From Prevotella sp. (GTDB taxonomy: Bacteria > Bacteroidota > Bacteroidia > Bacteroidales > Bacteroidaceae): 64,000 bases of DNA. A program made the position numbers and the translations under genes. Below are positions 10,198 through 27,526 of the stretch, in pieces. The first letter of the stretch is position 1. Each line of letters opens with the position of its first letter. The stretch covers positions 124,001 through 188,000 of the forward strand of contig JAFUAY010000012.1 of assembly GCA_017460515.1 (NCBI GenBank). Direction: 5' to 3'. The notes below the pieces were generated by a model, which did no database searches, was not told where the DNA came from, and was given only the letters and a program-made list of their open reading frames with translations.

Positions 10198-10220
10198 ATA
10201 CCTTATTTTAAAATTGGGTG

Positions 10221-10228
10221 CAAAGATA
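10221..10228 (-). promoter_or_regulatory. ffh promoter -7 box
   Basis: TATCTTTG on the minus strand, 23 bases upstream of the chosen ffh ATG. Its position excludes the upstream in-frame ATG at 10251. Confidence 0.65.
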
Positions 10229-10299
10229 ATCATTTCTTTTGAATCCCCCAAGATATGACCGCGAAATTAGTCTGTCTCGGCAAAAAAAGAATGGATTCT

Positions 10300-10330
10300 T
10301 TTGTTTTGCGCTCGACTTTTCGTAATTTTG
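10300..10330 (+). promoter_or_regulatory. Promoter of the DUF6078 gene
   Basis: TTTG (10300-10303), 19 bases, then TAATTTTG (10323-10330). The gene's ATG begins only 5 bases after the box, about where transcription should start, so the mRNA may be leaderless. Confidence 0.6.
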
Positions 10331-10335
10331 CAGTC

Positions 10336-10785
10336 ATGAAAGAGAAAAAGATAGAAAACATATTTCGCAAAGTGCCGGCAAGTTGGCAGATTTGCTTTTT
10401 GGAAGATTGTCCTGTAAAGGAAAAATGTCTGCGATATATGCTGGCTGACCAGCAAACAAAGAAATGTGATTTTGGCCCCGCCATCTTCCCTACTATCAAG
10501 CGGAACGAGAAAGGATGTAAGATGTATGTTACCAGCGAACCTGTATTGATGGCATGGGGATTTGAAACACTGTTCAGCGAAGTGAAGAACCGCGATATAA
10601 AAGTATTACGCAAGTTCGTGAAGGATTGTGTTGGCGGTCACAGTAATTACTATCGCTACAACAACGGACAACGACTGTTGACACCTGAGCTTCAAACGCT
10701 GATTATCGGCAAGTTCAAGGAGTACGGCTATCAGGACAACCTGATCTTCGACCACTATGCCTACGTGTACGGCTTCGACCACTAA
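10336..10785 (+). CDS. DUF6078 family protein
   Basis: The 149-residue protein has an N-terminal segment with cysteines (QICFLEDCPVKEKCLRYMLA, then a further CDFGP). It also has an aromatic-rich C-terminal half (VLMAWGFETLF, YYRYNNGQRLLTPELQ, FDHYAYVYGF). This layout fits the small Bacteroidota family DUF6078, whose function is unknown. The Cys residues may bind a metal (inference). The start at 10336 is preferred over 10255 because the promoter lies at 10300-10330. It is divergent from ffh. The left palindromic repeat of the neighbouring VirE unit begins at its stop codon. Confidence 0.7.
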   Translation: MKEKKIENIFRKVPASWQICFLEDCPVKEKCLRYMLADQQTKKCDFGPAIFPTIKRNEKGCKMYVTSEPVLMAWGFETLFSEVKNRDIKVLRKFVKDCVGGHSNYYRYNNGQRLLTPELQTLIIGKFKEYGYQDNLIFDHYAYVYGFDH

Positions 10786-10847
10786 AACCTTGCATTTCCT
10801 ACACCTGCACCTGATTATCAATAGGTTAGCATCAGAAAAGCTACACC
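10784..10847 (+). repeat. Left inverted repeat of the VirE unit
   Basis: It begins AAAACCTTGCATTTCCTACA and includes CTGATTATCAATAGGTTA. Read against the reverse complement of 13255-13318, 31 of 38 bases agree over the best stretch (10791-10828). It also shows weak internal dyad symmetry (CCTA...TAGG). Three ACCTGCACC units follow or overlap it (10803-10871). Confidence 0.65.
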
Positions 10848-11202
10848 AATACCTGCACCAGAACCTGCACCAGGGCTCCCATCCCCGTTTTAGGGAAAGA
10901 AATTGAAAGAAATTGACAGAAATTATTATAATTATTCTAATTTCTTTCTATGATAAATCAGTGGCGTAGCCTGTTTTCATTGTTATTTATTATTATTTAA
11001 CAAAAATACCAAGTTTTATCCGAATTATTGGGATAAATTTTCCGCCATACGCGGACAACTTGTCCCTCATAGAGGGACTGTTTGTTGCAACAATAGGGAC
11101 ACTTGCTAAACAGCCTACTTACTGATTACCAACCAATTACTCTCTTGCAAAAGGCCTCGAAATTTTGTATCTTTGCAGTGGATTTTAAAAAACAGAAAAA
11201 CT
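10786..11202 (+). other. 417-base non-coding region upstream of the VirE gene
   Basis: It holds the left inverted repeat, repeated ACCTGCACC units, AAGAAATTGA direct repeats (10897-10922), the hairpin CCGCCATACGCGG (11042-11054), and the dyad TGTCCCTcatAGAGGGACtg (11071-11090). It ends with the VirE promoter. I see no gene in it. Confidence 0.6.
11144..11175 (+). promoter_or_regulatory. Promoter of the VirE-like gene
   Basis: TTGC near 11145 is followed after about 20 bases by TATCTTTG at 11168-11175. This places transcription start near 11182 and favours the ATG at 11203 over the one at 11173. Confidence 0.65.
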
Positions 11203-13203
11203 ATGAAGATAACAAAAGTAACCATGAAAGACGGCGTGATGCAGCAGCCGGTGACAACCACCCTGCAAGCCGAGGCAGACAGAATGCATCGTGAGAACAT
11301 GCTCAGCGGTAGAGAACTGCCCAAGTTGATTTTCAGCGCCACCTTCGGACGAGGCGGCTTTGAAGAGGTAAAACAACTGACCGGACTCTTAGTACTGACA
11401 GCCTTTAGTGATTCGGAACAGCAGATTGGCGAGTGGCAGCGACTGGCCATGCAGGTGCCCTATACGGTGCTCGCTTATCGCAGCCTCAACCGTCATAAGC
11501 TGCACATCGTAGTACGCGTAGGCTTTGCCGATGGTCATGAGGCCTCATCTACAGCGGAATATCTGCAGATGCTTCGTCAGGCACAACAGCAGACAGCCGT
11601 CATCTATCAGTCGTTGGCAGGTTGCGAATGGATGCCGGAGGAACTGCAAATGAACAGTTGCTATGCCATGAGCTACGACCCGTTGGCGCAAGCAAACGAG
11701 GAGGCGCAGTTCTTTCCTGTAGTTCTCAAAGACAATGACCTACTGAGTACCTGTCGTCAGCCTTATGTGGACGACAATGGTAACGTCGAGGACGGGCTTA
11801 CCGACGAGGAACGCGAGCACATGAAAGAGGAATACTATACTTGTCTGAAGAAAGCACTCGAAGAACATCCTAACCAAAAGGATCAAGAACAGGCGCTCTG
11901 CACGTTGGCTGGCTATTGTCATCAGGCCCATCTGGAAGAGGAAGCTTCCGTGCGTCGCACCCTTTGGCAATGGCAGTTCCGCGAGCATGAAGACATTGTG
12001 CGCAAAATATTCCGTGCTGCCTATGCTCGCAACTATCAAGGAAAAGCCCTCTCACAGATGAACCAAAAGGAGCGTATCGCCCGTAGCATTCGCGATTTCT
12101 TTAACCGTCGCTATCAACTGCGCTACAACGAGGTGAAACAAATCGTGGAGTATCGTGCAAACGACCAGACCTTCTACCCTTGGAAGCCGTTGGACGACCG
12201 CGAACTGCGTCGCATAGCCTTCGAGGACATGTTGGAGGGAGGTCAGGCCTGGCTGGTAGATATCGAGATGTACGTGAGGTCATCGTTCGTCAAACGCTAT
12301 AACCCCATCCTGGAATTCCTGGGCGGTGTGGGCACATGGGATCAGAAACACAACTATATAGAGGCATACGCGCGAAGACTCAAGACCGACTACGCACGCT
12401 GGCCACATTTCTTCCATCGCTGGCTCTTGGCTGTGGTTGCCCAGGCAATGGGCAAGAATCGCGACTACGGCAACTCGATGGTGCCTCTGCTCATCGGCAC
12501 TCAGGCCATGAAGAAATCCACGTTCTGCAAGAACATCCTTCCCTACTCGCTTCGCGAATACTATATGGACGATATCAAGATGGATAACGCCGAACAGGTG
12601 GAGCGCGTTTTGGGGCGCATGTGGCTGGTGAACATCGACGAGTATAACGCTAAGACGGAACGCGAACAGGCCAAGATTAAGCGTCTGCTTACTGAGAAGG
12701 ATGTTCAGATGCGTAAGATGCGCTCCGACCAGTATGTCATGACGCCCCGTCTCTGCTCGTTTATTGCCACCACCAACGATCTCCGTCCGCTCACCGATCC
12801 CAGTGGTTCGCGTCGCTACCTGTGTGTCGAGATGACCGGTCAGGCCGACATGTCAGGCGACATCAACTATCGCCAGATGTATGCCCAGGCCGTATGGGAA
12901 ATCGAACATGGAGAACAATACTGGTTCGACAACGATGACGAACGCGAGATTATGGAGCATAACGCGAAGTACGAGCTATCCACCTCTCTTGATGAAACGC
13001 TCAACAACCTGTTCATCGCAGCCCCGCGCACTAAGGAGCATTTCATGACTGCTACCGATATTCAGCATCACCTAAGTAACGTGCTCATGAAAGGCGACAT
13101 CCCCACCCTGAGCAAGCTTGGTCGTGTGCTCCATCGCCAGCACATCCCCGACGGTTCACAGAACGGCATCCGCGGCTACTACCTCAGTCTCCGCAAAAAG
13201 TAG
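11203..13203 (+). CDS. VirE N-terminal (BT4734-like) / VapE-type primase-helicase protein
   Basis: The 666-residue protein has an N-terminal BT4734-like VirE_N region (about residues 40-170, FSATFGRGGFEEVKQLTGLL onward) and a C-terminal VapE-type NTPase (about residues 370-570). Visible motifs are a Walker A-like GTQAMKKST, the LVNIDEY Walker B segment, and FIATTNDLRPLTDPSGSRRY, the sensor/arginine region of VapE proteins. The second glycine of a canonical P-loop is replaced by lysine. Such proteins occur in Bacteroidota mobile elements and isolated genomic spots; a DNA primase/helicase role is inferred from the family. It stands alone between inverted repeats at 10784-10847 and 13255-13318. 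The start follows the promoter at 11168. Confidence 0.85.
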   Translation: MKITKVTMKDGVMQQPVTTTLQAEADRMHRENMLSGRELPKLIFSATFGRGGFEEVKQLTGLLVLTAFSDSEQQIGEWQRLAMQVPYTVLAYRSLNRHKLHIVVRVGFADGHEASSTAEYLQMLRQAQQQTAVIYQSLAGCEWMPEELQMNSCYAMSYDPLAQANEEAQFFPVVLKDNDLLSTCRQPYVDDNGNVEDGLTDEEREHMKEEYYTCLKKALEEHPNQKDQEQALCTLAGYCHQAHLEEEASVRRTLWQWQFREHEDIVRKIFRAAYARNYQGKALSQMNQKERIARSIRDFFNRRYQLRYNEVKQIVEYRANDQTFYPWKPLDDRELRRIAFEDMLEGGQAWLVDIEMYVRSSFVKRYNPILEFLGGVGTWDQKHNYIEAYARRLKTDYARWPHFFHRWLLAVVAQAMGKNRDYGNSMVPLLIGTQAMKKSTFCKNILPYSLREYYMDDIKMDNAEQVERVLGRMWLVNIDEYNAKTEREQAKIKRLLTEKDVQMRKMRSDQYVMTPRLCSFIATTNDLRPLTDPSGSRRYLCVEMTGQADMSGDINYRQMYAQAVWEIEHGEQYWFDNDDEREIMEHNAKYELSTSLDETLNNLFIAAPRTKEHFMTATDIQHHLSNVLMKGDIPTLSKLGRVLHRQHIPDGSQNGIRGYYLSLRKK

Positions 13204-13254
13204 CTTCTGGTGCATCTCCCAGTGTAACTTTTGTAAAAGTCTGGTGTAACTTTT

Positions 13255-13318
13255 AGTGTAAGAAAAGCCTGCATAACCTACTGATAATCAGTTATCAGTG
13301 TAGGTAATGCAGGCTTTT
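13255..13318 (-). repeat. Right inverted repeat of the VirE unit; also a long hairpin
   Basis: The segment is nearly self-palindromic: AAAAGCCTGCATAACCTAC pairs with GTAGGTAATGCAGGCTTTT around a centre near 13290. It would terminate transcription of the VirE gene from either side. Its reverse complement matches the left repeat at 10784-10847. Confidence 0.7.
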
Positions 13319-13372
13319 CATTCCTCCGCTGCCATAGGCATCTGCAAGTCCTCTTCCTCCAGTTCCGGATAA

Positions 13373-13412
13373 TCCATCTTACCTCTTCCATCTAACATCT
13401 TACATCTTATTA
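13373..13412 (+). repeat. Heptad-type repeat downstream of rhuM (copy A)
   Basis: It starts TCCATCTTACCTCTTCCAT and contains CATCTTACATCTTA, built from 7-base units. It is nearly the same as, and in the same orientation as, 14542-14581 on the other side of the rhuM gene. Confidence 0.7.
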
Positions 13413-13434
13413 TAGTATGGAAAACACGAAAATG

Positions 13435-14472
13435 TTACATACCACCCTTGCTGCCTTTCTTCTTGGTTTTCTTCTCAATGAGTTTGATAGACTCTAGATA
13501 ATCCTGTTCTACTGGCGACAATGTCTTCACTTGGAATTTCCTGTACTCAATTAAAGCCTTATTCATTGCTTCCTCATGAGATACAGAGCCTGCCCCTTCC
13601 AGCAGTTCATCGCCATTGGCAGACAAGATGTTGTCTAACTGACGAACATAGTCTTCCATATACATAGGTCGATGACGAAGGGCCTGAGTCTCTGCAAAGT
13701 CAAAATATCCAGAAACGATGTTATTCAATATCTTTAGTTCCTCAGCCGTGAGATAATTCTTTGCTATCTTAATATCGTTAATGCAAGGCAGTTCACCTTT
13801 GAACGATGTCAATCCCATAAAAGGTTTGTCAGCATCCGCACGATCATAAATCACCTCTGCAGCCGTATGTCCGTGAGCTGCATAGTGCAGTTTGTTCTGC
13901 ACCATCTTAAAGAACAGTTTCGAAGCATCCGTGCGAGGGTCATAATCAACACTGGTAGCATAGAGGTCAAGCACCTGTCTGTACATCACCTTCTCAGATG
14001 AACGGATGTCACGGATACGATCCAACAACTCTTTCCAGTAGCCCCCACCACCAAGATTCTTCAGTCGCTCATCGTCCATCGTGAAGCCCTTGATGATGTA
14101 TTCCGCCAGCCGCTCTGTAGCCCACTGACGGAAGCGAGTACCCACAATAGACTTTACGCGATAACCAACGGAAATGATGACATCGAGGTTATAGAGTGTC
14201 ACTTCTTGACTCTGTGTCTTCCCTTCTACAGCACCATGTTGAGTGGTATGTCGGAATTTCCGACATACCTTCTCTCTTTCCAATTCTCCTTCCTTGAAGA
14301 TGTTAGAGATGTGTTCTGTTATCGTTGATCTGCCCTTACCATACAGCTGAGCAATTTGTTCCTGTGTCAGCCATACGGTTTTCTCCTCCAACCTGACATC
14401 GAGCCTTATTTTCCCATCCTCTGATTGATAGATGATAATCTCTCCTTTATTATTTCCTATTTCTTCTGTCAT
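13435..14472 (-). CDS. RhuM-family protein
   Basis: The 345-residue protein opens with a segment ending TVWLTQEQIAQLYGKGRSTI. It continues with ITEHISNIFKEGEL, a VTLYNLDVIISVGYRVKS stretch, and FRQWATERLAEYIIKGFTMD, the conserved core of the RhuM virulence-protein family (PF13310). The first part resembles a helix-turn-helix. The C-terminal half (LHYAAHGHTAAEVIYDRADA) is also typical. The biochemical function is unknown; family members are often found near restriction-modification and other defence genes. It lies 173 bases downstream of the GHKL/helicase gene on the same strand and is flanked by near-identical direct repeats. Confidence 0.88.
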   Translation of the reverse strand: MTEEIGNNKGEIIIYQSEDGKIRLDVRLEEKTVWLTQEQIAQLYGKGRSTITEHISNIFKEGELEREKVCRKFRHTTQHGAVEGKTQSQEVTLYNLDVIISVGYRVKSIVGTRFRQWATERLAEYIIKGFTMDDERLKNLGGGGYWKELLDRIRDIRSSEKVMYRQVLDLYATSVDYDPRTDASKLFFKMVQNKLHYAAHGHTAAEVIYDRADADKPFMGLTSFKGELPCINDIKIAKNYLTAEELKILNNIVSGYFDFAETQALRHRPMYMEDYVRQLDNILSANGDELLEGAGSVSHEEAMNKALIEYRKFQVKTLSPVEQDYLESIKLIEKKTKKKGSKGGM

Positions 14473-14541
14473 ATCTCGTCTTACTTTATTTCTATAACGT
14501 TTTTCTTTCGTCCTTATTTTGTGACTCCGTAGATCCGTGAC

Positions 14542-14581
14542 TCCATCTCACCTCTTCCATCATCCATCTTACATCTTATAT
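14542..14581 (+). repeat. Heptad-type repeat upstream of rhuM (copy B)
   Basis: It starts TCCATCTCACCTCTTCCAT and contains CCATCTTACATCTTATAT, nearly the same as copy A at 13373-13412 in the same orientation. The pair brackets the rhuM gene. Confidence 0.7.
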
Positions 14582-14645
14582 CGGTGCGAGACAAGTACCA
14601 GTCCCTGGGTGTCCTCCAATCTTATTTCTGTCAATTCTCGATTGA

Positions 14646-17600
14646 TTACCAATCACTTAGGCCATATTCAAACTTGTCATACAATTTTTCAGTATTTTTC
14701 TTATTTGAATAAGCTTGTATACGCTTTAATGCTTCAGCTGCTTGAGTTTTACGCCTCTTAGTTTCAACAGCTTTTTCTTTTTTTCGGATAATATGAGAAT
14801 TTAATGCTTCCTCGAAGGTTTTTAAATCTAGGTTTCTGACATTAAGATCACTAATACTTTTTATTGGAACCTTGTGACTTATTAATATTTGTACTAAGAG
14901 TGGATAAAGAGCATCTGTTAGCTCATTTTTTTTCACCTTGTCTTTCAATGACTTTATATCCTCTCTTTCAACTTTATACCAACCACAACTATTTGCAATA
15001 TCTGAGTCACCGATAATTTTTACAAGCGCAAATAATGAACAATAGGTACAATCAGAAATCATTATTTCGAATGCGTCTTGTATGTCCAAATTTGCTTTGG
15101 AGAAGTAATCGTAATAATATTGCGGATCTGCATCATTAATAGGCTCATCAGGAACTAATCTAACCTTCAAAATTTTCGATTCGTTTGATTGGATTTCATT
15201 ATTAGTAACCATGATAGGCTTCTCTCCTTCACTAGCATCCTGCGATTCTACTATAGTCTCTTTGGTGTCGAACCTTTTGCTATCTATAGATGCAGGCTCC
15301 ACATGAGTCTGATAATTTTTCCCTGTTGTCTGAATGTCGACCGCATTTTCATCTATGCGAACTTCGTACAGACTTGATGGATTCGTATATACATTGGCGA
15401 CCTGATGAGTAGTCACAAATGTATTAGACTCAATAAAGCCTTTATTGCCGAAGATGCTCTTTTCAATGATTTCCGCATTATATACACCAACAGAGGAACA
15501 TTTACGATTAGCTATACCACAAAGCCTGTTTAGCTCAATAAGGTTGTCATAGCCGTAACTATCAGGATGTGGTAAAAGAACAAAGAGATAGTCGCGAGCA
15601 CGGCTAATAGCCACATTGATTATTTTTTGATTATTCAGCATTATTCTATCAGCAGCGACTTTGATACCTGTAGGCGGATTAAAAACTGTTATGATAATAT
15701 CACATTGGTCCCCTTGGAATCCATGAATGGTACCAACCAATACTTCCACATTTGATGGTATATCGGTTCTTTGCTCAATCATTTTGTTTATTAACTGAGC
15801 TTGCGGAGCATATGGACAGATAATACCAATTTTTACACTCTCGATAGTTTGAGATTTAGATAGATAGGCACAGGTTTCGACAGCAAAAATAGCAGAATAA
15901 ACGTGTACGTTACTGCCTTGCAGTTTTTTTGCCCCATAAATACTATCAAACTTTTCAACCCTAAATGGGATAAAAGTGACTTGATCTGCTTTTATATTTC
16001 CTGTAGAGATGTTTCTTGCATCACTGTTTTTACGGTTGTGCTTTAACTTACCATCATAGCAATATTCACTATACAGGCTACCAATCGAAGGAAGTGAGCG
16101 GTATTGAGTGTCTAGTTTCTCAACATCAAATTGTATTGGCTTGGTGACAGGATTCTCAAAATTATCCAATTCAACCATAGTGTAAATATTCTCTCCAACC
16201 CATGCCTCTTCTCTAACTATTGGAGCAATTTGCAAGGGGTCACCAGCAATGATGAATTTGGTCCCAAGTTTAAAGATTGAATAGATGATCTGTACTAAAG
16301 GTATCATTGAAGCCTCGTCAATAATAACAAAGTCCCATTCTATATCTCTCAGTAATAAGTGCATAGGCGACTGAGTAAAGCCGTCATATGGAAGTCTGGC
16401 CATAGTAGAGACAATACAACATTTATTCTTTGTATACAATTCACTACTTCTGTCAATCAGTTTACCTTCGCTTTCAATCACTTCGTCACCAGTAGCAACA
16501 AAACGGCCAAGCCAAGAAGTGTCTTCAGCATTATCAATCAGGCTTCTTGTTAATACGTCACAGGCTTTGTTTGTCGGTGTTAAAACCAAAATCCTGCAGT
16601 TTGGCCTTTCCATTTTTTGCTTGATTATGTTGGTAAGACGTGTCGTCTTGCCTGTTCCTGGAGGACCAAAAACAAAACTAAGATTATTACTCAACCCCAA
16701 TTTGAAGTTGTAATCATCGTCGTAAGGTAAATTTTCAAATTCATTCTTTAAGCGATGCATAATCTCCACAGGGCTGTTTACATCAATGACAGCTTTTGAG
16801 CATCTAGACCAGTCTATTTGGTCAATGAGATTAACATCACTAGCCTTAGCCTTGACTCGAAGCGTGAAGTCCTTCACATTAGCAACTTCAAAATCAAAAA
16901 CAATATCATCTCTATTGAAGAAAGTAAATTTCACTGAGAAACCACCCAGGTCTTCAATCCAAATGGGGATGTTTCTAGAAGGATTGCTTAACTGGTAGAT
17001 TCTCTCAGAGCCAGGTTCTTTTCTGAATTTTCCAAAAGAAATTTTTACGCCAGATCTGTTACCAGAAGGCTCTGAGGAACTACTATATTCAAGCTCCAAT
17101 AAGGTTGTAAACCATATTTTGGAATACTTTTCCAAGTCTTCAACCTGAGCCCTTTTATTTTCTTCTTCTATTCTTTTATTTGCTTCATCTGCCAATTTCT
17201 GTGTGATTTCGTTCACACGCTCATCCGTGCTCTTCTCTACTTTAGGTGAACTTTTCTTAGGTGCTTCTGTTGAAGAAGACATCTCGTCTAAGTTAGTCTT
17301 GCGTTGAGAAGAAGTAGACGAATTGTCATTATTTTGATGTTCTTCTTCATCTTGAGTATAATCTGCATGATGGAGTTTAGATGATGACTCTCGTCTGTTT
17401 TTCTCTTCAAGAGCTTCTAATGCCAGTCTAAGTTTCTCTGGTGTGTCAAGGCCCAAACTTGCAGCAGCCTTACCTAGCTCATTCTGGTATATCTGAGATC
17501 GAGAAGCTCCTAAGTCCTTTAAAGATTTTGTCTTCTTTTCAATCCCCAAAAATTTGATTAGATTGTAGTCAATTTTATACTCTGCCTTTTCGAGATCTTC

Positions 17601-20036
17601 TAGACCAATTTCACTCGGATTATATGCTCGATCGTCATCAGATATAACAATCCATGCTTTATTCAATAACTGGTTGAATAAAGATGTAGCCATTTGACCA
17701 GAATAATATGAGTAATACTGATACTTTACAGTTGTTTGTTTATACTTCTCTAGGTTGTAATATTCTGAGAGCCAATTCCAAAAAGTTTTAGAATCTTGTA
17801 TGTAATTAAATCTTTTATCCTCGAATCCGTCAATATGATAATCCTCAAAACTGCACCAAGTATATTTTTTTATACCCAAAGACTGCTGTTCCTTAGAACT
17901 TAAATAATATCTAGACTCTTTGATTATCTTGGGAAATGATGCCACACCCAATTCGGAAATAAATGAATGGAATTCTTGTACAGAGTATTTGTCAATAAAT
18001 TTCTGGTACTTTTTTATGTTTACATATTTTTTTTGCTGACCTCGAAAGTAACTTAACAACGATTCTGTATTATCATATAAATCACGAGCAAGACTCTTAC
18101 CCCCTAATGTGTTAATCAAAAGGAACTCTTCCGAGAGATCTTTAATTCTTTCCTTTCGATTCGTGGGATTGTCTATTTTGCTTATGTATTCATAGACAAT
18201 TTCCAAATCGTTGTTTAATTCGTTGTCATTAAGATGATTGCCCTCAGCATGTTTTTTGAGAACAATACTATGTATGTAATCCCAAGCATCTGGCTTTTTC
18301 AAACCGAGGTCATCAAGGAACAAGCTTGTCTCTTTCTCCTTGAGATATTCATCTGCAACAAAATTATAATCGTCAACATCGTTGGCTAAAGGGAGATAAA
18401 CATTTAATGCACCAGACTTCAGGTATGGTGGTTCCCATGTACCTTTGCTGGTAAGCAGAATTGGACTTAAACAGAACGGCGTCTCAGATAATTCCTTTTT
18501 ACTATTAGAGACACGTTTCCATAAGTTTACCTGTTCGTTCCTAAGGTGAGTATATAATCTTTTGGCCCATTTATAGCCATACTCCTCCATAAATTCAGAT
18601 GTAATACTGTTGGCTAGGTTTTTGCCATCGAACACCTGAACATCAAGTTCGTCCAGAATTTCTTCTACATAATTCTGACTATACATTCTTTGAGTATCTT
18701 CTCTAAGGAAGTTATATTCTACCTCTTCTTCGGCCTCATCATAATAGTCTTCATCTTCCTCGTCATACTCTTCATGAAGAAGTTCTCTAAGCTGCTTGTC
18801 GCTTATAATATGCATCATAGAAATTGGACGGCATATCATTGCACCTGCAGGGAATATGTATCTATTGCCTCGTCCCAATAGCAGTTCTTCATCCTGGATT
18901 ATACTTATATAAGCATCTCTAAAAGTGTCGTCTGTATAAGGATAATGTGAATGATCCTTTGGGGGGATGAAATTGAATATATTTTCATTTATCAGCAACT
19001 CTCCGTGCTTTTTTCCATAATCACGCAGGTAGACCAAAGCCTTTGCAGCAAGGTTTGCCAGATTCTTCTTTAAAAATGTATTATGCTTATCATCTTTGAG
19101 TTGTTGGCGACTGTCAACCAGCAAGAATGGAGCATGAACAACACAATGCAATTTGAAACGCTCTGCAGTCGGGAAAAAACAAAACACTTTTCCTGTAATA
19201 CCATCATCTAGTTCACCATTTTGTTTGAGGAAGTAACCGACCGATATAAATTGCTTGATACTTTTATTCTCTTCATTCGTCACTTCAATTTCTCTGGTAA
19301 ACATATGAATCTTCTGTTTCTGTCCATTATTAAGGACAGATAAAAGCTCATGTTTTACTTTATCATATTGTAATTCGTCAAGAACTTTCTTCTCATACAA
19401 TATGGTCTCTTCGCTAGGTATTTCAATGATGACTTTCTTTAAATGGCGAAGAAATAGAATAGGATTGTCCAAATGCTTTAGCCTTTCTGTTATTTCTTTA
19501 TAAGCAGAGGCTGGTGAAACAAATGGAAATTCAAATACTGTTTCCCCTTTGTTACGTCCATGAAAATCATTTTCGAGTGCTGTTGGAACGATATAGTTTT
19601 CTATTTTGAACCAAAAAATGTCATCATAGATATGTGGCTCAGTAGTATATTGAAATACGGCCTTAAATCCAACACCGAATTTACCAATCGTATTACCGTC
19701 CTTTTCATTTTTAGTGGAATTACCTACTCCCGTAATAGCGTTAATATGTCCTTTTTTAGTAATATCATTTACTGGAGTAATCGTAAAATGGATTTTGCCA
19801 TTGTGACGAAATACTACTTTATCCCTTTGAAGTTGGAAAATAGCTTCTGAAGCTTGTGCATCGTCAGCATTTTGAAGAAGTTCATATACAAAATGAGCCT
19901 TTTCCTTGTATTTATCTACAACTCCTGACCATATTCCTTTATAGTCCGGCTTGTTAAATGTCCTAGCATCTAATTCGCGCTCATTATGTAATGCTTCGAA
20001 CAGCGCTATGTCAGTTTTAGATAAGTTTGAATTCAT
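14646..20036 (-). CDS. Giant defence-type protein: sacsin/HSP90-like GHKL ATPase fused to UPF1-like SF1 helicase
   Basis: The 1796-residue protein starts with a GHKL ATPase of the sacsin type: N-box HFVYELLQNADDAQ (about 49-62), GVGNST (103-108) and GKFGVGFKAVFQYT (118-131). A long middle region contains an acidic patch near residue 425 and a Ser/Glu-rich linker near 890-950. A superfamily 1 helicase follows: Walker A FGPPGTGKTTRL (G1124-K1130 within it), Walker B IIDEAS (1240-1243), GTIHGFQGDQCDII (near 1434) and NVAISRARDYLFVLLP (near 1473). About 300 C-terminal residues are unrecognised; no nuclease motif is obvious. The gene is visibly AT-richer than its neighbours, suggesting transfer. 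It lies 132 bases downstream of the RecQ/UvrD gene on the same strand. A role in phage or plasmid defence is inferred from domain type and company. Confidence 0.85.
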   Translation of the reverse strand: MNSNLSKTDIALFEALHNERELDARTFNKPDYKGIWSGVVDKYKEKAHFVYELLQNADDAQASEAIFQLQRDKVVFRHNGKIHFTITPVNDITKKGHINAITGVGNSTKNEKDGNTIGKFGVGFKAVFQYTTEPHIYDDIFWFKIENYIVPTALENDFHGRNKGETVFEFPFVSPASAYKEITERLKHLDNPILFLRHLKKVIIEIPSEETILYEKKVLDELQYDKVKHELLSVLNNGQKQKIHMFTREIEVTNEENKSIKQFISVGYFLKQNGELDDGITGKVFCFFPTAERFKLHCVVHAPFLLVDSRQQLKDDKHNTFLKKNLANLAAKALVYLRDYGKKHGELLINENIFNFIPPKDHSHYPYTDDTFRDAYISIIQDEELLLGRGNRYIFPAGAMICRPISMMHIISDKQLRELLHEEYDEEDEDYYDEAEEEVEYNFLREDTQRMYSQNYVEEILDELDVQVFDGKNLANSITSEFMEEYGYKWAKRLYTHLRNEQVNLWKRVSNSKKELSETPFCLSPILLTSKGTWEPPYLKSGALNVYLPLANDVDDYNFVADEYLKEKETSLFLDDLGLKKPDAWDYIHSIVLKKHAEGNHLNDNELNNDLEIVYEYISKIDNPTNRKERIKDLSEEFLLINTLGGKSLARDLYDNTESLLSYFRGQQKKYVNIKKYQKFIDKYSVQEFHSFISELGVASFPKIIKESRYYLSSKEQQSLGIKKYTWCSFEDYHIDGFEDKRFNYIQDSKTFWNWLSEYYNLEKYKQTTVKYQYYSYYSGQMATSLFNQLLNKAWIVISDDDRAYNPSEIGLEDLEKAEYKIDYNLIKFLGIEKKTKSLKDLGASRSQIYQNELGKAAASLGLDTPEKLRLALEALEEKNRRESSSKLHHADYTQDEEEHQNNDNSSTSSQRKTNLDEMSSSTEAPKKSSPKVEKSTDERVNEITQKLADEANKRIEEENKRAQVEDLEKYSKIWFTTLLELEYSSSSEPSGNRSGVKISFGKFRKEPGSERIYQLSNPSRNIPIWIEDLGGFSVKFTFFNRDDIVFDFEVANVKDFTLRVKAKASDVNLIDQIDWSRCSKAVIDVNSPVEIMHRLKNEFENLPYDDDYNFKLGLSNNLSFVFGPPGTGKTTRLTNIIKQKMERPNCRILVLTPTNKACDVLTRSLIDNAEDTSWLGRFVATGDEVIESEGKLIDRSSELYTKNKCCIVSTMARLPYDGFTQSPMHLLLRDIEWDFVIIDEASMIPLVQIIYSIFKLGTKFIIAGDPLQIAPIVREEAWVGENIYTMVELDNFENPVTKPIQFDVEKLDTQYRSLPSIGSLYSEYCYDGKLKHNRKNSDARNISTGNIKADQVTFIPFRVEKFDSIYGAKKLQGSNVHVYSAIFAVETCAYLSKSQTIESVKIGIICPYAPQAQLINKMIEQRTDIPSNVEVLVGTIHGFQGDQCDIIITVFNPPTGIKVAADRIMLNNQKIINVAISRARDYLFVLLPHPDSYGYDNLIELNRLCGIANRKCSSVGVYNAEIIEKSIFGNKGFIESNTFVTTHQVANVYTNPSSLYEVRIDENAVDIQTTGKNYQTHVEPASIDSKRFDTKETIVESQDASEGEKPIMVTNNEIQSNESKILKVRLVPDEPINDADPQYYYDYFSKANLDIQDAFEIMISDCTYCSLFALVKIIGDSDIANSCGWYKVEREDIKSLKDKVKKNELTDALYPLLVQILISHKVPIKSISDLNVRNLDLKTFEEALNSHIIRKKEKAVETKRRKTQAAEALKRIQAYSNKKNTEKLYDKFEYGLSDW

Positions 20037-20050
20037 ATTCCTATTGGTAT

Positions 20051-20096
20051 ATTTCTATAATATGAAAGCGAGAATAAATTTCTTAGATTATGAAAG
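20051..20096 (-). promoter_or_regulatory. Paired direct repeats upstream of the GHKL/helicase gene
   Basis: Two near-identical 18-19 base sequences, ATTTCTATAATATGAAAG (20051-20068) and ATTTCTTAGATTATGAAAG (20078-20096), lie 15-60 bases before the ATG at 20036. Their 27-base periodicity and position suit an operator for a regulator. This is inference. Confidence 0.45.
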
Positions 20097-20168
20097 TGGG
20101 TTATAATACCTTTTGTTAACTACTCTTTCTCTCATTACTTTGATATCTCTTTACAATTCAATTAGTAT

Positions 20169-23100
20169 TTAAGTTGTCATAGAACATGATAATTCTTGGT
20201 CAATTCTTTTTAGTGCGATATTCACCAGACAAACGGCGTATTCTGTTTCAGAGTCCTGAGGTCTCCAAGCCAGAGTGTAACTAACCTTGGCACTTGTCAC
20301 TTCATAGCCCTTATCAGTCCACGCTTTCAGTTTGTCTTTTCCCAATGCAGATAGTGCAATTATGTTGATTCCTTGGTTATTAAGCAAGTAACCATCTTGG
20401 TATTGTAGGCAATCCCCACTTCTAAGACGAAGCACTAATTCTTTGCGCCCCTTGAAGAAATTAAGAATAACGTCATGCATGTTTAGCGCAATGGATATTG
20501 ACGAATACTCAACAGGAGGATTAGTAACGAGAAATAAATTTTGCTTTGCACGAGTTAGACCTACGTAATAGGCTCGCATGTCATTGACATCTCTCCCGTC
20601 TGGAATAGTCGACATGAGATATACAGTATCGAACTCACGTCCCTTTGCTTTATGTATAGTACTTACAAATACAGATTTGTCATCTGTTGCGATGAAATCT
20701 TCAATGTTCGACTCAAAGATGTATTCTCGTAAATCACTTTGATAATAAACTTGTCGTGTAGCTTCAAAATCCGCAAAGAAATGTTTCATGACATTCCGAC
20801 AAGTACTTGATGCATATGTTTCAAGTGTGCGTTGTTTCGCTTCCTGCCACCTTTCTTTTGATATTGATATTTCGTTCCTACCAAGTTGCTTGAGGAAATA
20901 ACGGACTTCTGCAAGGTTCCCAAAGCGGAATCCTCCCATAGATTGAGCAATAGTAGCATGCAAGCCTCTTTGTTCCAGTTCATATGCTACTTGCATGGTC
21001 TCTTCATTGGTGCGAGTTAGAATAGCTGTTTTTCCATTAACCTTTATTTCTGCATCAAGAAGTGATTTTAACGTCATCACCTTACCATTTTCTCCTGTAA
21101 CAGATTGAATGGGATTGTGTTTCATGCGACCTGGTATGCGCTGCACAAAGCGATTAGCACAGTCAACCACAGATTTAGAAGAACGATAGTTGTCTGTCAT
21201 CTCATACAACTTGGCCCCCTCTTCACTAACAATCGATTGCATATATTTGGAATCGGAGCCACGGAAAGCATAGATGTTTTGGTCATCATCGCCAACAGCA
21301 ATGACTCGCATCTCTTCATTTTGATGCATTAGAGCCTGAACCAGGCGGAAGTCGTCAGCACCCATATCCTGTGCCTCATCAATAACTAGTACGCTTTTAG
21401 CTATCTTCGACTGTTCTACCTCACCATTTTCAATCATCTCTGCGGCTCGACTTACCACATCTTTCGCCTCATCCAAGTTGCCCTGTTTGCCTATCAGGTC
21501 AAAACTGTAGGAATGGAAGGTTTTGATTTCCACATAGTGTGCAGCATTGCCAACCAAATCAATGAGTCGCTTCTTGAATTCTGTAGCAGCTGCCCTTGAA
21601 AAAGTAAGCATCAGCAACTGTTCATGCTTCACGTCTTCTAACAGCAATAGGGAGGCGAGCTTGTGGACCAATACTCGTGTCTTACCGCTGCCAGGCCCTG
21701 CTGCCACCACGATATATTTCGACTCTTTATCGTCAATAATCTCACATTGACGATTAGATAGTTCACCAAAGAGTTTGTTGTATTTGGCTGGTGTGATGTT
21801 TTGGTCAATCTGCGCACGTCGTTCTTCCTTGAAATACTGATTGATGAACTTACGGAAGTCGAGTGTGAAGTAGTCGTTCACAAAACGAAGTGCAGCATCA
21901 TAGTCGCGAACCATCAGGTTGGCATATTCGCCTACAATATGAATTTGGCGTATGCGTTGCTTGTAGAATTCATCCAACAGACGATACTGTTCCTTGCCAT
22001 ATCTTGTACGACGGTCAGCTATACGACCTATCTGCATGGTGTTATAGATGACGATGAACCCGCCTTCAATCTTCATCAGTTCTGTCTTAGTGAGATAAAG
22101 CAGCGCTTCCTCAATGTCAGCAATTGTAGGCTTTTCCTGATTGGCAAACATTGTCTCCTGCTGACTGGCAATGAACTGTTGGAGTATTTCGACAATTGAA
22201 AAGTTCACAAGCGTCATGTCTTTACTTGGATCTCGACTGATATTGAGCGTATCCACAATAAAACGGCAAATATCCACACGTCGTTCAAATCGAGCCTTTG
22301 TAACTTCATGAGAAGCTTGCAGTCGAACACTCACACTCTCGCTGAAACTATGTTCCTGTTTGTGAATATAGCCTTTCAACGAAAGGAAATGAAGTAACGT
22401 TCTTAGACGCTTGATGTTTGAGTATGAAAGACCTGCTTTTTGAGCCTCCTCGTTCAGTTCTTTATAGTTGATTCTTTGTGACTCCTCGCCCAACCTCTGC
22501 AAAAGGAAATGTTCTAACTTTAAGATGACATCAAGATTGCGTTGAGATGTGCTCTTGGATATCCAGGCTTGCATATCTCGACTATCTGCCAACAAACCAT
22601 CTTGTCTCATCAGGTTAATGTTCCTGATAACAGTTGCCTTGTTCATTCCAAGGATGTCTGCTAGATAATCAACACGGCTCTCAGCCTCAGCCCCTCGACC
22701 TTCTGCTGTAGCTCGTGCACTAATGAGTGACTTGATGATACGAGCTGCTTCCTCGCGAGATTGTTCATCAAAGAGTGGTGATGCTGTCAGTTTCCGACGA
22801 GCCTCATCCATGTTCTTCACGGCAATGCCAGTAGCAAAAACATGGGGAGAGTTGCTGCCTCGTTGTATGAATCCTGCATCTTCCAATGCGGCAATGGCGG
22901 CCTTTACACGAGTTTCTATATCTTCTACATCTTCACCCCATCCTGCCTGACGCGCAATGTCCAATGGCGAACAACTCACTTTCTCTCGTTTTGCCGTTAG
23001 GTCCTTGATAGCTTTCCAGACTTGCTGAATCTCGCTAATACTAAGCTTCGTTTGATTTAGGAGTATGAAATGCTTATCGAGGTCACTATCGGCATACAAC

Positions 23101-24887
23101 ACATAACATTCTGCCTGCATCTCTGGGTCACGTCCAGCACGACCAGCTTCCTGTACATAGTTCTCCAATGAGTCGCTGATGTTATAGTGTACGACAAGCC
23201 CTACGTCTTTCTTGTCAACTCCCATGCCAAACGCGGAAGTCGCCACAATCACCTGTGCCTCGCCACTCATAAATGCATTTTGGTTCTTCACCTTCTCGGC
23301 TGCCTCCATCTTACCATTAAACGGCAAGGCTCGTATGCCATCGCTAACCAAATGCTGTGCTAACTCACGTGTACGTCGAGTGCGTGAAACATAGACAATT
23401 GAAGGACAGTTATGTCCAAGTATCAGCGAACGCAGCAGGTTGTATTTCTCATCAGGAGTATCTGCATGGAGAACAGAATAACGTAGATTCTTTCTTTCAG
23501 CATTGGCAGCAAAAACCTTTAATTCTAAACCAAGCTTCGCCCTGAAGTAGTCACAGATATCGCTGATAACCTTTTGCTTGGCTGTTGCTGTAAAACACGA
23601 TACAGCAATGGGCTTCTCCAGATGCTTTTTTTCTTGTAACTCACGAATGAAGTCTCCAATATATAGATAATCCACACGGAAATCGTGTCCCCAAGCGGAG
23701 AAGCAATGTGCCTCGTCAATCACAAAACGCACCACATGTCTGCCTAGCAACAGTCGCTCAATAGTCTTACTCCGCAACATCTCTGGTGCAATGTAAAGTA
23801 TATTTGCCGTACCCTCTGCTACCTGTTGGATGGCCGTAGAGCGTTCGATGGGATCAAGCAGACCATTGATGGTTACTGCTTCACTGATACCTCGTGCTGC
23901 TAAGTTGTCTACTTGGTCTTTCATGAGCGACTGCAAAGGCGAAATAACCACTGTCAAACCATGAGTATTCCGTCCCGCCATTAATGCCGGCAGTTGAAAG
24001 GTGAGGCTCTTACCGCCACCTGTTGGGAATATGGTCAGCAAGGATTCACCACGTATAGCAGATTCCACTGCCTGTTGCTGCATAGGAACACCATCAAAGG
24101 TACGGAACTCATCATAACCGAAGAATTCCTTCAGGCCACTATGTGCATCTAATCGACTATGACAATAATCACAATCGCCGCATGAAGTGTTACACAGCAG
24201 GTTCATCACATTGACTACCTGAGGATAGTTTCGTATTACCCAAGCTGGTGTGATTGAGAAAATATCGTCAGCCCCAATCACAGCCAAGCAATATGCCAAC
24301 TCTATTGGGTATTGTCTGACCAATGTGTCGAAGTCCGAATGGCAGCATACTTTTCCTTCAAACTCCTTTAGAATCAATTGTGTCCAATTGGGTTGAGTTC
24401 CTAAAAGTCTGCCCAATATAGACTGTTGAAAAGTTGAGGAACACCCAACATATCTAAAAAATCCTTTGAATTGGTCTGTTTCATGCAATAGCTGATAGTA
24501 GATTTCCTGTCTGTCATTAGACAATTGATTCCAAGCTGCAATCTCGTCATTTAGCAAGTCACGTGCCTTCATGGAGTCATTCACAGGATTATTCAGTTCA
24601 TCCACCTGCAACTTATCATCCTTTACCAAATGGTGGTAAGGTCGTTTGGGAAATAATAACGGCGAAAGGAGCAACGTGTCAATAATCGTATAATTACCTC
24701 TCAAAGCTGTATATTTCAGGTCGTGATTGATGATATTATGACCACAAACCGTATCGCATTTTGACACAAAGGCATCAAAGTCGGCTTTAGAATGAGAGTG
24801 CAAAACTGCACCATCTTCCCTGACCGCTCCATAATCCGCCACCTTCTTCGTTTGCGGATTTACCTCCGTATCAATAAATGCTATCAT
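20169..24887 (-). CDS. DEDD exonuclease-RecQ helicase-UvrD helicase fusion
   Basis: The 1572-residue protein joins three DNA-processing modules. Residues 1-130 resemble a DnaQ-like 3'-5' exonuclease (FIDTEV, then GHNIINHD, then KARDLL). A Cys cluster CNTSCGDCDYC (near 230) precedes a RecQ helicase with FPTGGGKSLTFQL (near 286), IDEAHCFSAWGHDFR (near 389), and ATSAFGMGVDKKDV with VQEAGRAGRD. Its winged-helix-like region leads to a UvrD/PcrA helicase with AGPGSGKTRVLVHK (near 1063), IDEAQDMGADD (near 1168), GDDDQNIYAFRGS, and TIHKAKGREFD with YVGLTRAKQNL. It follows the TA locus and precedes the GHKL/helicase gene on the same strand. RecQ-UvrD giants are known in Bacteroidota; a defence or recombination role is inferred. 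Confidence 0.88.
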   Translation of the reverse strand: MIAFIDTEVNPQTKKVADYGAVREDGAVLHSHSKADFDAFVSKCDTVCGHNIINHDLKYTALRGNYTIIDTLLLSPLLFPKRPYHHLVKDDKLQVDELNNPVNDSMKARDLLNDEIAAWNQLSNDRQEIYYQLLHETDQFKGFFRYVGCSSTFQQSILGRLLGTQPNWTQLILKEFEGKVCCHSDFDTLVRQYPIELAYCLAVIGADDIFSITPAWVIRNYPQVVNVMNLLCNTSCGDCDYCHSRLDAHSGLKEFFGYDEFRTFDGVPMQQQAVESAIRGESLLTIFPTGGGKSLTFQLPALMAGRNTHGLTVVISPLQSLMKDQVDNLAARGISEAVTINGLLDPIERSTAIQQVAEGTANILYIAPEMLRSKTIERLLLGRHVVRFVIDEAHCFSAWGHDFRVDYLYIGDFIRELQEKKHLEKPIAVSCFTATAKQKVISDICDYFRAKLGLELKVFAANAERKNLRYSVLHADTPDEKYNLLRSLILGHNCPSIVYVSRTRRTRELAQHLVSDGIRALPFNGKMEAAEKVKNQNAFMSGEAQVIVATSAFGMGVDKKDVGLVVHYNISDSLENYVQEAGRAGRDPEMQAECYVLYADSDLDKHFILLNQTKLSISEIQQVWKAIKDLTAKREKVSCSPLDIARQAGWGEDVEDIETRVKAAIAALEDAGFIQRGSNSPHVFATGIAVKNMDEARRKLTASPLFDEQSREEAARIIKSLISARATAEGRGAEAESRVDYLADILGMNKATVIRNINLMRQDGLLADSRDMQAWISKSTSQRNLDVILKLEHFLLQRLGEESQRINYKELNEEAQKAGLSYSNIKRLRTLLHFLSLKGYIHKQEHSFSESVSVRLQASHEVTKARFERRVDICRFIVDTLNISRDPSKDMTLVNFSIVEILQQFIASQQETMFANQEKPTIADIEEALLYLTKTELMKIEGGFIVIYNTMQIGRIADRRTRYGKEQYRLLDEFYKQRIRQIHIVGEYANLMVRDYDAALRFVNDYFTLDFRKFINQYFKEERRAQIDQNITPAKYNKLFGELSNRQCEIIDDKESKYIVVAAGPGSGKTRVLVHKLASLLLLEDVKHEQLLMLTFSRAAATEFKKRLIDLVGNAAHYVEIKTFHSYSFDLIGKQGNLDEAKDVVSRAAEMIENGEVEQSKIAKSVLVIDEAQDMGADDFRLVQALMHQNEEMRVIAVGDDDQNIYAFRGSDSKYMQSIVSEEGAKLYEMTDNYRSSKSVVDCANRFVQRIPGRMKHNPIQSVTGENGKVMTLKSLLDAEIKVNGKTAILTRTNEETMQVAYELEQRGLHATIAQSMGGFRFGNLAEVRYFLKQLGRNEISISKERWQEAKQRTLETYASSTCRNVMKHFFADFEATRQVYYQSDLREYIFESNIEDFIATDDKSVFVSTIHKAKGREFDTVYLMSTIPDGRDVNDMRAYYVGLTRAKQNLFLVTNPPVEYSSISIALNMHDVILNFFKGRKELVLRLRSGDCLQYQDGYLLNNQGINIIALSALGKDKLKAWTDKGYEVTSAKVSYTLAWRPQDSETEYAVCLVNIALKRIDQELSCSMTT

Positions 24888-25302
24888 GACTTTATTTCTT
24901 TATTGTTCTACATTCCTCTAAACACCTTTTTTCTATGATACACCAGGAAAACGCGATTAGGCAGGTGTTCGATGGGTTAAGTTAGCTTCTTACTTCTTTA
25001 TAGTTCTTATGTTATTATACGCTCCCTTCTTCTACCTTTGCGCTCAGTTCGTCGCTTGGACTGTCCTTGGACCGAGGGTATAAGCTTGCCTATATTCATC
25101 TTATGCCTATCTGCGTAATATGCCACAAAATTAAAAAATCTTTTCCAAACTAAAACACTTTTGCGCAAATATCTTTCATTTTTCAATAAAAGTAGATTAT
25201 AGATGGAGCAAATAACGCAAAAACCAGCACCCCGAAACAGGGCACTGGTTTATATTATTTTGGTGAATCTTCCGTTATGCAAACGGCTAGCCAAATGACA
25301 TG
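24888..25302. other. 415-base intergenic region between the RecQ/UvrD gene and the TA locus
   Basis: On the minus strand TAATTTTG (25133-25126) could drive the RecQ/UvrD gene with a 240-base leader. On the plus strand TACCTTTG (25033-25040) is followed by a short dyad (TTGGACtGTCC / TTGGACC), which might start a small antisense transcript. Otherwise only the HEPN/MNT terminator is recognisable. Confidence 0.4.
25217..25250 (-). terminator. Terminator after the HEPN/MNT locus
   Basis: On the minus strand a 13-bp stem with G-U pairs (AACCAGTGCCCTG / CGGGGTGCTGGTT, 3-base loop) is followed by TTTTT. It lies about 50 bases past the HEPN stop. Confidence 0.8.
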
Positions 25303-25536
25303 TCAGGAGACTAAAAATGGGATAGTCAAATGCCCTCTAACGCGTCCTTTGACTGTGGGATGACCATTGGCTATTAATAATGCTGATACCGCATAGTATG
25401 CAGCATAATAAACTCTGTTAGCAATTACCTCCCATGTCTGTAAAGGCAAATTTACTTTTGCCTGCATGAGTGCTCTATCGGCTTTTTCAAGACGATAGGT
25501 TACAACTGCGGTTCTTTCTTCTTGACTCAAACTCAT
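25303..25536 (-). pseudogene. HEPN-domain protein, C-terminally truncated (toxin half of HEPN/MNT)
   Basis: The 77-residue frame starts SLSQEERTAVVTYRLEKADR and has VIANRVYYAAYYAVSALLI, the helical HEPN signature. Intact HEPN partners are about 120-140 residues and continue after this helix with a conserved H-x-G motif and a second helix bundle. Here similarity ends after ANGHPTVKG, and the frame closes with an unrelated tail (RVRGHLTIPFLVS). No continuation is visible in the other two frames before the terminator. The Rx4-6H RNase motif is therefore missing. Its ATG overlaps the stop of the MNT gene by 4 bases. It is probably an inactivated toxin. Confidence 0.65.
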
Positions 25537-25856: not shown

Positions 25857-25877
25857 AATATTGGTATTCAGACGCTG

Positions 25878-25885
25878 CAAATGTA
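25878..25885 (-). promoter_or_regulatory. HEPN/MNT promoter -7 box
   Basis: TACATTTG on the minus strand, 21 bases upstream of the MNT ATG at 25856. Confidence 0.55.
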
Positions 25886-25961
25886 GGCAATAATCTGGAT
25901 ATAAACAAGAAATCGGGCGAGAATTTACTGGAAATCCTCGCCTGATGTTTTTTTTATAATT

Positions 25962-27455: not shown

Positions 27456-27526
27456 TGTTAAAGTGTAATTGTTGATTAGGTAATAATATTAGGTTTATTG
27501 TTTTGTTCAGATAAAGGGCATGTTCT

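What the first reader, a model, noticed from the sequence alone, without database searches (positions are those of the whole stretch)
14646..20036. Sacsin/HSP90-like ATPase fused to a UPF1-like helicase with an uncharacterised C-terminal domain
Both nucleotide-binding centres look intact (NADDA/GVGFKAVF and GPPGTGKT/DEAS). No nuclease motif is visible, and the last ~300 residues match nothing I know. The gene is AT-rich compared with its surroundings. The combination suggests a large sensor-effector of phage or plasmid defence.
Basis: partly seen in the sequence, partly recalled or inferred. Interest (0 to 1): 0.7.

Follow-up and report, generated by a model that had tools for sequence, protein, structure and literature searches.

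The report
Tiamat-like ATPase fused to UPF1 helicase
A very large gene in a bacterium that is probably related to Prevotella joins an HSP90/sacsin-type ATPase to a UPF1-type helicase; it belongs to a rare, mobile, modular family whose members often sit beside DNA restriction systems, so it is probably a virus- or plasmid-defence machine, although this has not been tested in the laboratory.

Summary
The gene is on the MINUS strand (14646-20036): one intact 1796-residue frame, 36% G+C against 48.5% for the rest of the window. It has a sacsin-type HATPase and a UPF1-type SF1 helicase; the active-site residues are invariant in 17 of 17 aligned members. The 'uncharacterised last 300 residues' are two things: 1491-1570, conserved in the family, and an orphan tail found in three proteins (27% identical where the helicase is 80%). 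Profiles put residues 43-956 in the Tiamat (TmtA) family and only the helicase near Mokosh MkoA, so it is filed under neither. It is not a core gene: two relatives have ffh beside queH, and a third within 2.5 kb, where this genome carries about 17 kb. Relatives are rare, on plasmids, chromosomes and viral contigs; 7 of 15 informative loci hold modification-type restriction, McrBC or BREX genes, but the window's island has none among the genes scanned. Helicase modules carry exchanged N-terminal halves, and an Ensifer plasmid encodes both parts as adjacent genes with nuclease domains. Best reading: accessory ATP-clamp/helicase of foreign nucleic-acid defence, a new variant of a known kind. Substrate and nuclease partner are unproven; structure prediction could not be run.

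The parts
14646..20036 (-). The gene: 1796-aa sacsin/HSP90-like ATPase + UPF1-like helicase
17220..20036 (-). N-terminal module, residues 1-939 (Tiamat/TmtA-like; HATPase plus middle region)
   Evidence: TmtA PDLC03972 43-956, 5.4e-45; module boundary near 940 inferred from swapped relatives
19437..19928 (-). HATPase domain, about residues 37-200
   Evidence: Pfam SACS, NCBIfam NF047352, PDB sacsin; end of domain approximate
19860..19883 (-). HATPase N-box E52-D59
   Evidence: E52, Q55, N56, D59 invariant in 17 of 17 members; motif name recalled
15567..16736 (-). UPF1-like SF1 helicase core, about residues 1101-1490
   Evidence: Pfam AAA_11/AAA_12, PDB NAM7/SEN1
16644..16667 (-). Walker A GPPGTGKT 1124-1131
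   Evidence: invariant in 17 of 17 members
15327..15566 (-). Family-wide C-terminal segment, residues 1491-1570 (E1525, H1544, N1548, Y1557, D1567)
14802..15131 (-). Orphan fast-evolving tail core, residues 1636-1745
   Evidence: 27% identical to L031 and L038 where the helicase is 80%; no usable Pfam or PDB match; in 399 family genomes found only in the own genome, G090 and a chance-level match of E 0.007
10252..27526 (.). Accessory segment between ffh and queH; ends approximate
   Evidence: DNA of ffh and queH lies 138 bp (L125), 250 bp (L124) and 2.45 kb (L126) apart in relatives; in L124 the esterase lies elsewhere, next to the folD region
20169..24887 (-). Upstream neighbour: RecQ + UvrD fusion (1572 aa) with a DEDD-like N-terminus suggested; not an obligate partner
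13435..14472 (-). Downstream neighbour: RhuM family
   Evidence: Pfam PF13310; PADLOC PDC-S05 candidate

Best explanation
It is an accessory, horizontally moving defence protein built from two exchangeable modules. Module 1 (residues 1-939) is a Tiamat-like sacsin/GHKL ATPase that probably dimerises and closes as an ATP-driven clamp when it meets a trigger. Module 2 (about 940-1570) is a UPF1-family helicase that translocates along single-stranded nucleic acid. On triggering, the clamp is thought to load or license the helicase on invading phage or plasmid nucleic acid, which is then stripped or unwound and exposed to nucleases supplied by neighbouring restriction systems (in several relatives) or by the host or an unlinked partner (in this genome). 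The variable tail, and in L031 a LOTUS-like domain, may choose the substrate. SHOWN: domains, intact active-site residues, family, modular exchange, accessory status, restriction or BREX context in 7 of 15 loci. INFERRED: dimer clamp, trigger, translocation, substrate, hand-over to nucleases and protection itself.
For: TmtA profile PDLC03968 matches 17 of 17 members. The catalytic residues listed in the observation check are invariant in 17 of 17. Island and near-empty site in three relatives. Rare, patchy distribution: 5 of 399 family, 9 of 393 order and 10 of 395 phylum genomes, own genome and partial matches counted each time. Restriction context in 7 of 15 informative loci: type III Mod+ResIII (L036), MTase+SF2 helicase (L037), MTase+ResIII (L063/L066), MTase (by BLAST to the L036 Mod only) + Res with RE_endonuc (L064), McrB-like AAA_5+McrC (L069), BREX (L073, L074). 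McrC gives only 2 matches in 61 phylum genomes. Module exchange: L073 and L071 share 56% over the helicase module but otherwise match only in the HATPase at about 30%. Ensifer plasmid: SNF2 helicase, SACS ATPase, and PDDEXK_1+RNase_H_2+UPF1-type helicase as three consecutive genes, that is, the two halves of this protein next door to nuclease domains. Precedents in print: GHKL ATPases in restriction operons (PMC2292703, passages); a GHKL-Shedu protein whose E27A ATPase variant loses phage defence (PMC12137116, passages).
Against: No restriction-modification gene was found among the island genes scanned; the nearest N6_N4 methyltransferase match on the same contig is about 65 kb away. 8 of 15 informative loci lack modification-type restriction, McrBC or BREX genes among what was scanned (L071 has only a ResIII helicase, a family found 9-20 times per genome). 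All four MTase neighbours lie on plasmids or viral contigs, while the MTase control (187 matches in 61 whole genomes) is mostly chromosomal, so P(>=4 of 12) = 5e-5 overstates the case. No nuclease was found in the protein. The upstream RecQ-UvrD gene occurs without it in 4 of 4 fetched contigs. No structure could be computed.
Confidence: 0.5

Rival explanations
1. RNA-directed defence: the helicase, like eukaryotic UPF1 and the CnuH helicases of CoCoNuT type IV restriction systems (predicted to target RNA), acts on phage transcripts or RNA-DNA hybrids, and the LOTUS-like domain and tail bind RNA.
For: Helicase closest in PDB to NAM7/UPF1 and SEN1; MkoA (Mokosh) profile PDLC03920 matches 17 of 17; LOTUS/OST-HTH-like N-terminus in L031 (Pfam PF12872 E 0.0024, below cut-off; a similar stretch in 2kpm, an uncharacterized protein, E 1.9); McrC beside the G1051 member; CoCoNuTs pair McrBC with UPF1-like helicases (PMC11090510, title, abstract start and passages).
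Against: Most recognisable partners act on DNA (methyltransferases, Res subunits, BREX). UPF1-like helicases also act on ssDNA (PMC11090510 passage). The LOTUS-like domain is absent from the window protein.
Confidence: 0.25
2. Abortive or dormancy effector: once triggered, the ATPase-helicase attacks host nucleic acid metabolism and stops growth.
For: Large sensor-like N-terminus plus ATPase is a common plan of suicide systems (recalled); HEPN-MNT pair in the same island.
Against: No toxin-like or nuclease domain detected; several relatives lie beside restriction systems that destroy invader DNA.
Confidence: 0.12
3. Not defence but a maintenance or replication helicase of mobile elements, carried for the element's own DNA.
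For: Relatives on plasmids and viral contigs; PrimPol and a Helicase_C_2 (DinG-like, name recalled) gene next to the Hymenobacter member; VapE/BT4734-like primase in the window island.
Against: Members on chromosome-sized contigs beside BREX and McrBC genes; no replication initiator or origin shown; Tiamat homology.
Confidence: 0.1
4. Host stress or protein/RNA quality-control factor resembling sacsin and UPF1.
For: Both domain types serve such roles in eukaryotes (sacsin: passages of PMC3710099; UPF1: passage of PMC11090510).
Against: No full-length match reported in any of 35 other same-genus genomes and present on plasmids; AT-rich island gene.
Confidence: 0.03

Closest known systems
Tiamat (TmtA), PADLOC profiles PDLC03972/03966/03968/03970
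   Same: Sacsin-type HATPase plus long middle region; residues 43-956 align to 38-887 of 1302 (5e-45); giant relative L073 aligns to 1-1451 of 1552 (4e-170).
   Different: The TmtA match stops before the helicase; this protein has a UPF1 helicase, the 1491-1570 segment and a tail outside any TmtA match. No protection data.
Mokosh MkoA/MkoC
   Same: UPF1-type helicase core 1228-1486 (4e-33).
   Different: Only positions 785-1072 of the 1112-position MkoA profile match; no phospholipase-D family among the 13 window proteins scanned with Pfam.
MORC/paraMORC GHKL ATPases of restriction systems (PMC2292703)
   Same: GHKL ATPase beside SF2 helicases, methylases and nucleases; proposed ATP-driven looping role (passages).
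   Different: Here the ATPase is of the sacsin type and is fused to an SF1 helicase; that paper has no occurrence of 'sacsin' or 'UPF1'.
CoCoNuT type IV restriction, CnuH helicase (PMC11090510)
   Same: UPF1-like helicase with McrBC partner; mirrored by the G1051 locus.
   Different: No occurrence of 'HATPase' or 'sacsin' there and 'Hsp90' only in a reference title; the window's genome (65% complete) has no McrC match.
Animal sacsin N-terminal repeat
   Same: HATPase region, PDB 5v44-5v47 (best 3.5e-8).
   Different: No HEPN, DnaJ or ubiquitin-like Pfam match; fused to a helicase.

Membership tests
Tiamat | TmtA N-terminal HATPase region | tested here: met
   17 of 17 members match TmtA profiles at E<=1e-5
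Tiamat | Match over the whole TmtA profile | tested here: not met
   best match covers 38-887 of 1302; helicase lies outside
Tiamat | Phage protection | not testable with these tools
   needs experiment
Mokosh | MkoA N-terminal part as well as helicase | tested here: not met
   profile 785-1072 of 1112 is the best stretch
Mokosh | Phospholipase-D partner or domain (feature recalled) | tested here: inconclusive
   no PLD family among 13 window proteins scanned; the other window genes were not scanned
UPF1-like SF1 helicase | SF1 motifs incl. GPPGTGKT, DEAS, GDPxQ, QxR, GFQGD, VAISRA (motif names recalled) | tested here: met
   Pfam AAA_11/12 and conserved residues
UPF1-like SF1 helicase | 5'-3' translocation on RNA or ssDNA | not testable with these tools
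   needs biochemistry
Sacsin-type HATPase | N-box ExxQNAxD and glycine box GxFGxGFK (names recalled) | tested here: met
Restriction-system accessory | Modification or restriction gene beside it | tested here: inconclusive
   7 of 15 informative loci yes; window island none among genes scanned
CoCoNuT (type IV restriction) | McrB/McrC partner | tested here: not met
   no McrC match in the window's genome, 65% complete
Two-gene system with the upstream RecQ-UvrD protein | Conserved co-occurrence | tested here: not met
   homologues in L123 (87%), L127, L128, L129, 4 of the 7 genomes with long matches, lack a P0001 homologue in the fetched stretch (L123 ends 2.7 kb beyond the gene); none of the 7 genomes has a full-length P0001 match; no strong P0002 match is listed beside other members (top hits only)

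The most novel reading that the evidence does not exclude
A stand-alone bacterial RNA-surveillance defence: an HSP90/sacsin-type clamp that licenses a UPF1-type helicase on phage RNA or RNA-DNA hybrids, with swappable recognition parts (LOTUS-like N-terminus, fast-evolving tail) and interchangeable N-terminal sensor halves, working without a dedicated nuclease.
Probability: 0.15. Interest if true: 0.8.

Novelty: new variant of a known kind. Interest (0 to 1): 0.5.

Why it matters
HSP90-like (GHKL) ATPases recur in restriction and defence operons, yet how they cooperate with helicases is unclear. Here the two are covalently joined, encoded as adjacent genes in another species, and exchanged as modules, including inside BREX clusters. 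One protein with both ATPase centres intact gives a tractable object for asking what the GHKL part does to a defence helicase. The rapidly diverging tail gives a concrete candidate for the part under arms-race pressure.

Tried and rejected
Two-gene system with the RecQ-UvrD neighbour: rejected, because homologues of the neighbour occur without it. Tail as a known domain: no usable match in Pfam (best E 0.58) or PDB sequences (best E 0.081, unrelated enzymes), no plasmid match, no second home in 399 family genomes beyond G090 and one E 0.007 match. DEDD exonuclease at the N-terminus of the neighbour: D6, E8, D56, D70 identical in five sequences but no PDB match (best E 0.37, unrelated), so left as a suggestion; the motif name is recalled. 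Flanking repeats: the only direct repeat of 16 bp or more found in 10000-26200 lies around the RhuM gene, not around the island. Rfam: no match at gathering threshold in 8000-29500. Phage records: 1 of 50,697, HATPase part only. Late checks of loci counted as without restriction genes: L067 neighbours match glycosidases and alpha-helical repeat proteins, the L031 neighbour is Lon protease. Papers: in 10 searches no listed title or abstract start described a sacsin/HSP90-like ATPase fused to a UPF1 helicase; I saw listings and, for eight papers, passages only; most subscription papers are not in that library, and the original Tiamat and Mokosh paper was not seen.

Structure prediction of the C-terminal half (A2, 22 tries) and N-terminal half (A3, 2 tries) found the machine busy each time, so no fold claim is made. 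Rows left out before counts: L046 (contig too short for context) and L066 (98% identical to L063, counted once) were left out of the 15 informative loci; L043, L075 and other partial matches were not put in the 17-member set. Only part of each locus's genes was scanned with Pfam, PADLOC or PDB sequences (L065 two, L067 three, L031 one, besides the family protein), so 'no restriction gene' means none among the genes scanned or annotated. The Prevotella relationship of the window is inferred from the 62% relative L031; no call names the window's genus.

Full report
OBSERVATION. Pfam finds SACS at 37-137, AAA_11/AAA_19 from about 1115 and AAA_12 at 1304-1487, above their cut-offs; NCBIfam finds the sacsin ATP-binding-like domain above cut-off. 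By sequence the helicase is nearest in PDB to NAM7/UPF1, SEN1, SMUBP-2 and DNA2. A profile of the N-terminal half finds sacsin structures 5v44-5v47 (best 3.5e-8). The gene has 36.0% G+C, the rest of the window 48.5%.

GENOMIC SETTING. Upstream on the same strand, 132 bp away, is a 1572-aa RecQ + UvrD fusion (20169-24887); downstream lie a RhuM-family gene (13435-14472) and a VapE/BT4734-like primase on the plus strand (11173-13203). A HEPN-MNT pair (25303-25880), a carboxylesterase and a DUF6078 gene complete the segment. DNA matching ffh and queH, which flank this segment in the window, lies 138 bp (L125), 250 bp (L124) and 2.45 kb (L126) apart in three fetched relatives. The stretch 10252-27526 is therefore largely accessory; its exact ends are not fixed, and in L124 the esterase lies elsewhere. 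Among 35 other same-genus genomes no full-length match was reported; the matches cover the helicase or a short HATPase stretch (in which some first-look candidates were not scored). The window's relation to Prevotella is inferred from its 62% relative.

FAMILY. Full-length relatives: a red-deer Prevotella MAG (L031, 62%), G090 (L038, 63%), G212 (L040, 34-35%), plasmids of Chryseobacterium (32%, 87% of the query covered) and Hymenobacter (34%, 55% covered by the matched pieces), G712, G815, G895 and G1051, and four IMG/VR contigs (33-34%; L063 and L066 are 98% identical). Three giants share only the HATPase and the helicase module with these: L042 (2669 aa), L073 (2307 aa), L074 (1783 aa). Tallies at the stated thresholds, own genome and partial matches included: 5 of 399 family, 9 of 393 order, 10 of 395 phylum genomes; 13 of 72,556 plasmids at E<=1e-10, one covering at least 80%; 1 of 50,697 phages, HATPase part only.

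ANATOMY. In an alignment of 17 members (window included) the listed residues of both nucleotide sites are invariant. The family core ends near residue 1570: a segment with E1525, H1544, N1548, Y1557 and D1567 follows the helicase. Of the eight members other than P0001, L031 and L038 that were measured, six end within 15 residues of it and two (L063, L066) carry 89 more; for L067, L069 and L071, where the script stopped, the printed ends show about 3, 10 and 21 residues. The tail beyond 1570 in P0001, L031 and L038 is an orphan. Its core 1636-1745 is 27% identical between the window and either relative, while 961-1100 is 85-89% and the helicase 80% identical; L031 and L038 share 56% in the tail and 90% in the helicase. 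It is thus the fastest-changing alignable part, as expected, but not proven, for a part in an arms race. L031 carries an extra N-terminal stretch resembling OST-HTH/LOTUS (Pfam E 0.0024, below cut-off; a similar stretch in 2kpm at E 1.9); the window protein has no room for it, since its frame is open for only six codons before the ATG.

MODULES. L073 and L071 are 56% identical over the helicase module (L071 residues 939-1568) but otherwise match only in the HATPase at about 30%; L042 and L040 behave alike (40% against 30%). A tree of the helicase module joins giant L073 with normal-sized L046/L071, and giant L042 with L040, each at 100/100 (several deeper forks are open, L074 and L069 are long branches and the program warns of long branches meeting). 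I read this as exchange of N-terminal halves in front of a conserved helicase module. On an Ensifer plasmid a separate SACS ATPase gene (28% over 11-416) lies between an SNF2-type helicase gene and a gene for PDDEXK_1 + RNase_H_2 + UPF1-type helicase (22% over 1235-1513). A Methanomethylovorans plasmid has SNF2 + SACS ATPase, and a Sulfuricurvum plasmid NERD + SACS-NOV_C + Qat.

CONTEXT. Of 15 informative, non-redundant loci, 7 contain modification-type restriction, McrBC or BREX genes: L036 (type III Mod, a 145-aa gene, ResIII helicase, then this gene, then UvrD+RNase_T), L037, L063/L066, L064 (its MTase known only by BLAST), L069 (McrB-like AAA_5 and McrC PF10117), L073 (BrxL, PglZ, QatABCD) and L074 (PglX, BrxC). 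L071 has a ResIII gene only. Seven have none among the genes scanned: window, L031 (Lon), L038 (which has DUF3584, DUF7281 and AAA_11/12-DUF2726 genes), L040, L065, L067 (a RhuM-like gene; glycosidase and repeat proteins), L042 (a Schlafen-Fic-like gene). Not every neighbour was scanned. Controls: McrC 2 matches in 61 phylum genomes; N6_N4 MTase 187 matches in 61, giving P about 0.018 per locus within 10 kb each side and 5e-5 for at least 4 of 12 full-length loci. The four MTase loci are plasmids or viral contigs and the control is mostly chromosomal, so that P is too small; ResIII is found 9-20 times per genome and was not counted. The window's genome has seven N6_N4 MTase matches, the nearest about 65 kb away on the same contig.

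NAMED SYSTEMS. TmtA (Tiamat) profiles match 17 of 17 members and MkoA (Mokosh) 17 of 17; for the window protein each covers only one half: TmtA 38-887 of 1302, MkoA 785-1072 of 1112. It is filed under neither. In print, GHKL ATPases in restriction operons with SF2 helicases and nucleases were described in 2008 (PMC2292703, passages), a GHKL-Shedu protein loses phage defence when its ATPase residue is changed (PMC12137116, passages), and CoCoNuT type IV systems pair McrBC with UPF1-like helicases (PMC11090510, passages). A 2026 BREX survey (PMC12839542) has no occurrence of HSP90, sacsin, UPF1, GHKL or Tiamat in its main text (word search only). In my ten paper searches no listed title or abstract start described this fusion.

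MECHANISM. Most likely the ATPase half acts as a sensing clamp that licenses the helicase half on invading nucleic acid, which is then stripped or unwound for nucleases supplied by others. Domains, conserved active-site residues, modularity, accessory status and context are shown. The trigger, substrate, dimerisation, nuclease partner and protection are inferred. DNA is favoured by the neighbours, RNA by the helicase kinship and the LOTUS-like domain. Defence in the broad sense I hold at about 0.8, the stated mechanism at 0.5.

Noticed in passing
window 13373-13410 and 14542-14579: A 38-bp imperfect direct repeat (89%) lies closely on either side of the RhuM gene (24 and 69 bp away), as if it were a small cassette; its core CATCTTACATCTTA has no further exact copy in the window.
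   Followed up: partly
window 20169-24887: RecQ and UvrD helicases fused in one 1572-aa protein whose N-terminus keeps D6, E8, D56 and D70 in five aligned sequences, resembling a DEDD exonuclease (WRN-like order, recalled); an 87% identical copy exists in G018.
   Followed up: partly
window 25303-25880: Adjacent HEPN (77 aa, shorter than the Pfam model) and MNT nucleotidyltransferase genes, a likely toxin-antitoxin pair.
   Followed up: no
L043:10297-11115: A truncated 272-aa copy, 97% identical to the L031 N-terminus including the end of its LOTUS-like part, with a type I restriction HsdR gene one gene away: probably recent decay of a close relative.
   Followed up: no
L038:14643-19901: DUF3584 SMC-like gene with DUF7281 and an unassigned 286-aa gene directly upstream of the G090 member; may be a Wadjet-like system (the name is a guess).
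   Followed up: no
L130:6234-9940: NERD nuclease gene followed by a sacsin ATPase with NO VEIN C-terminal domain, directly before annotated qatABCD genes.
   Followed up: no
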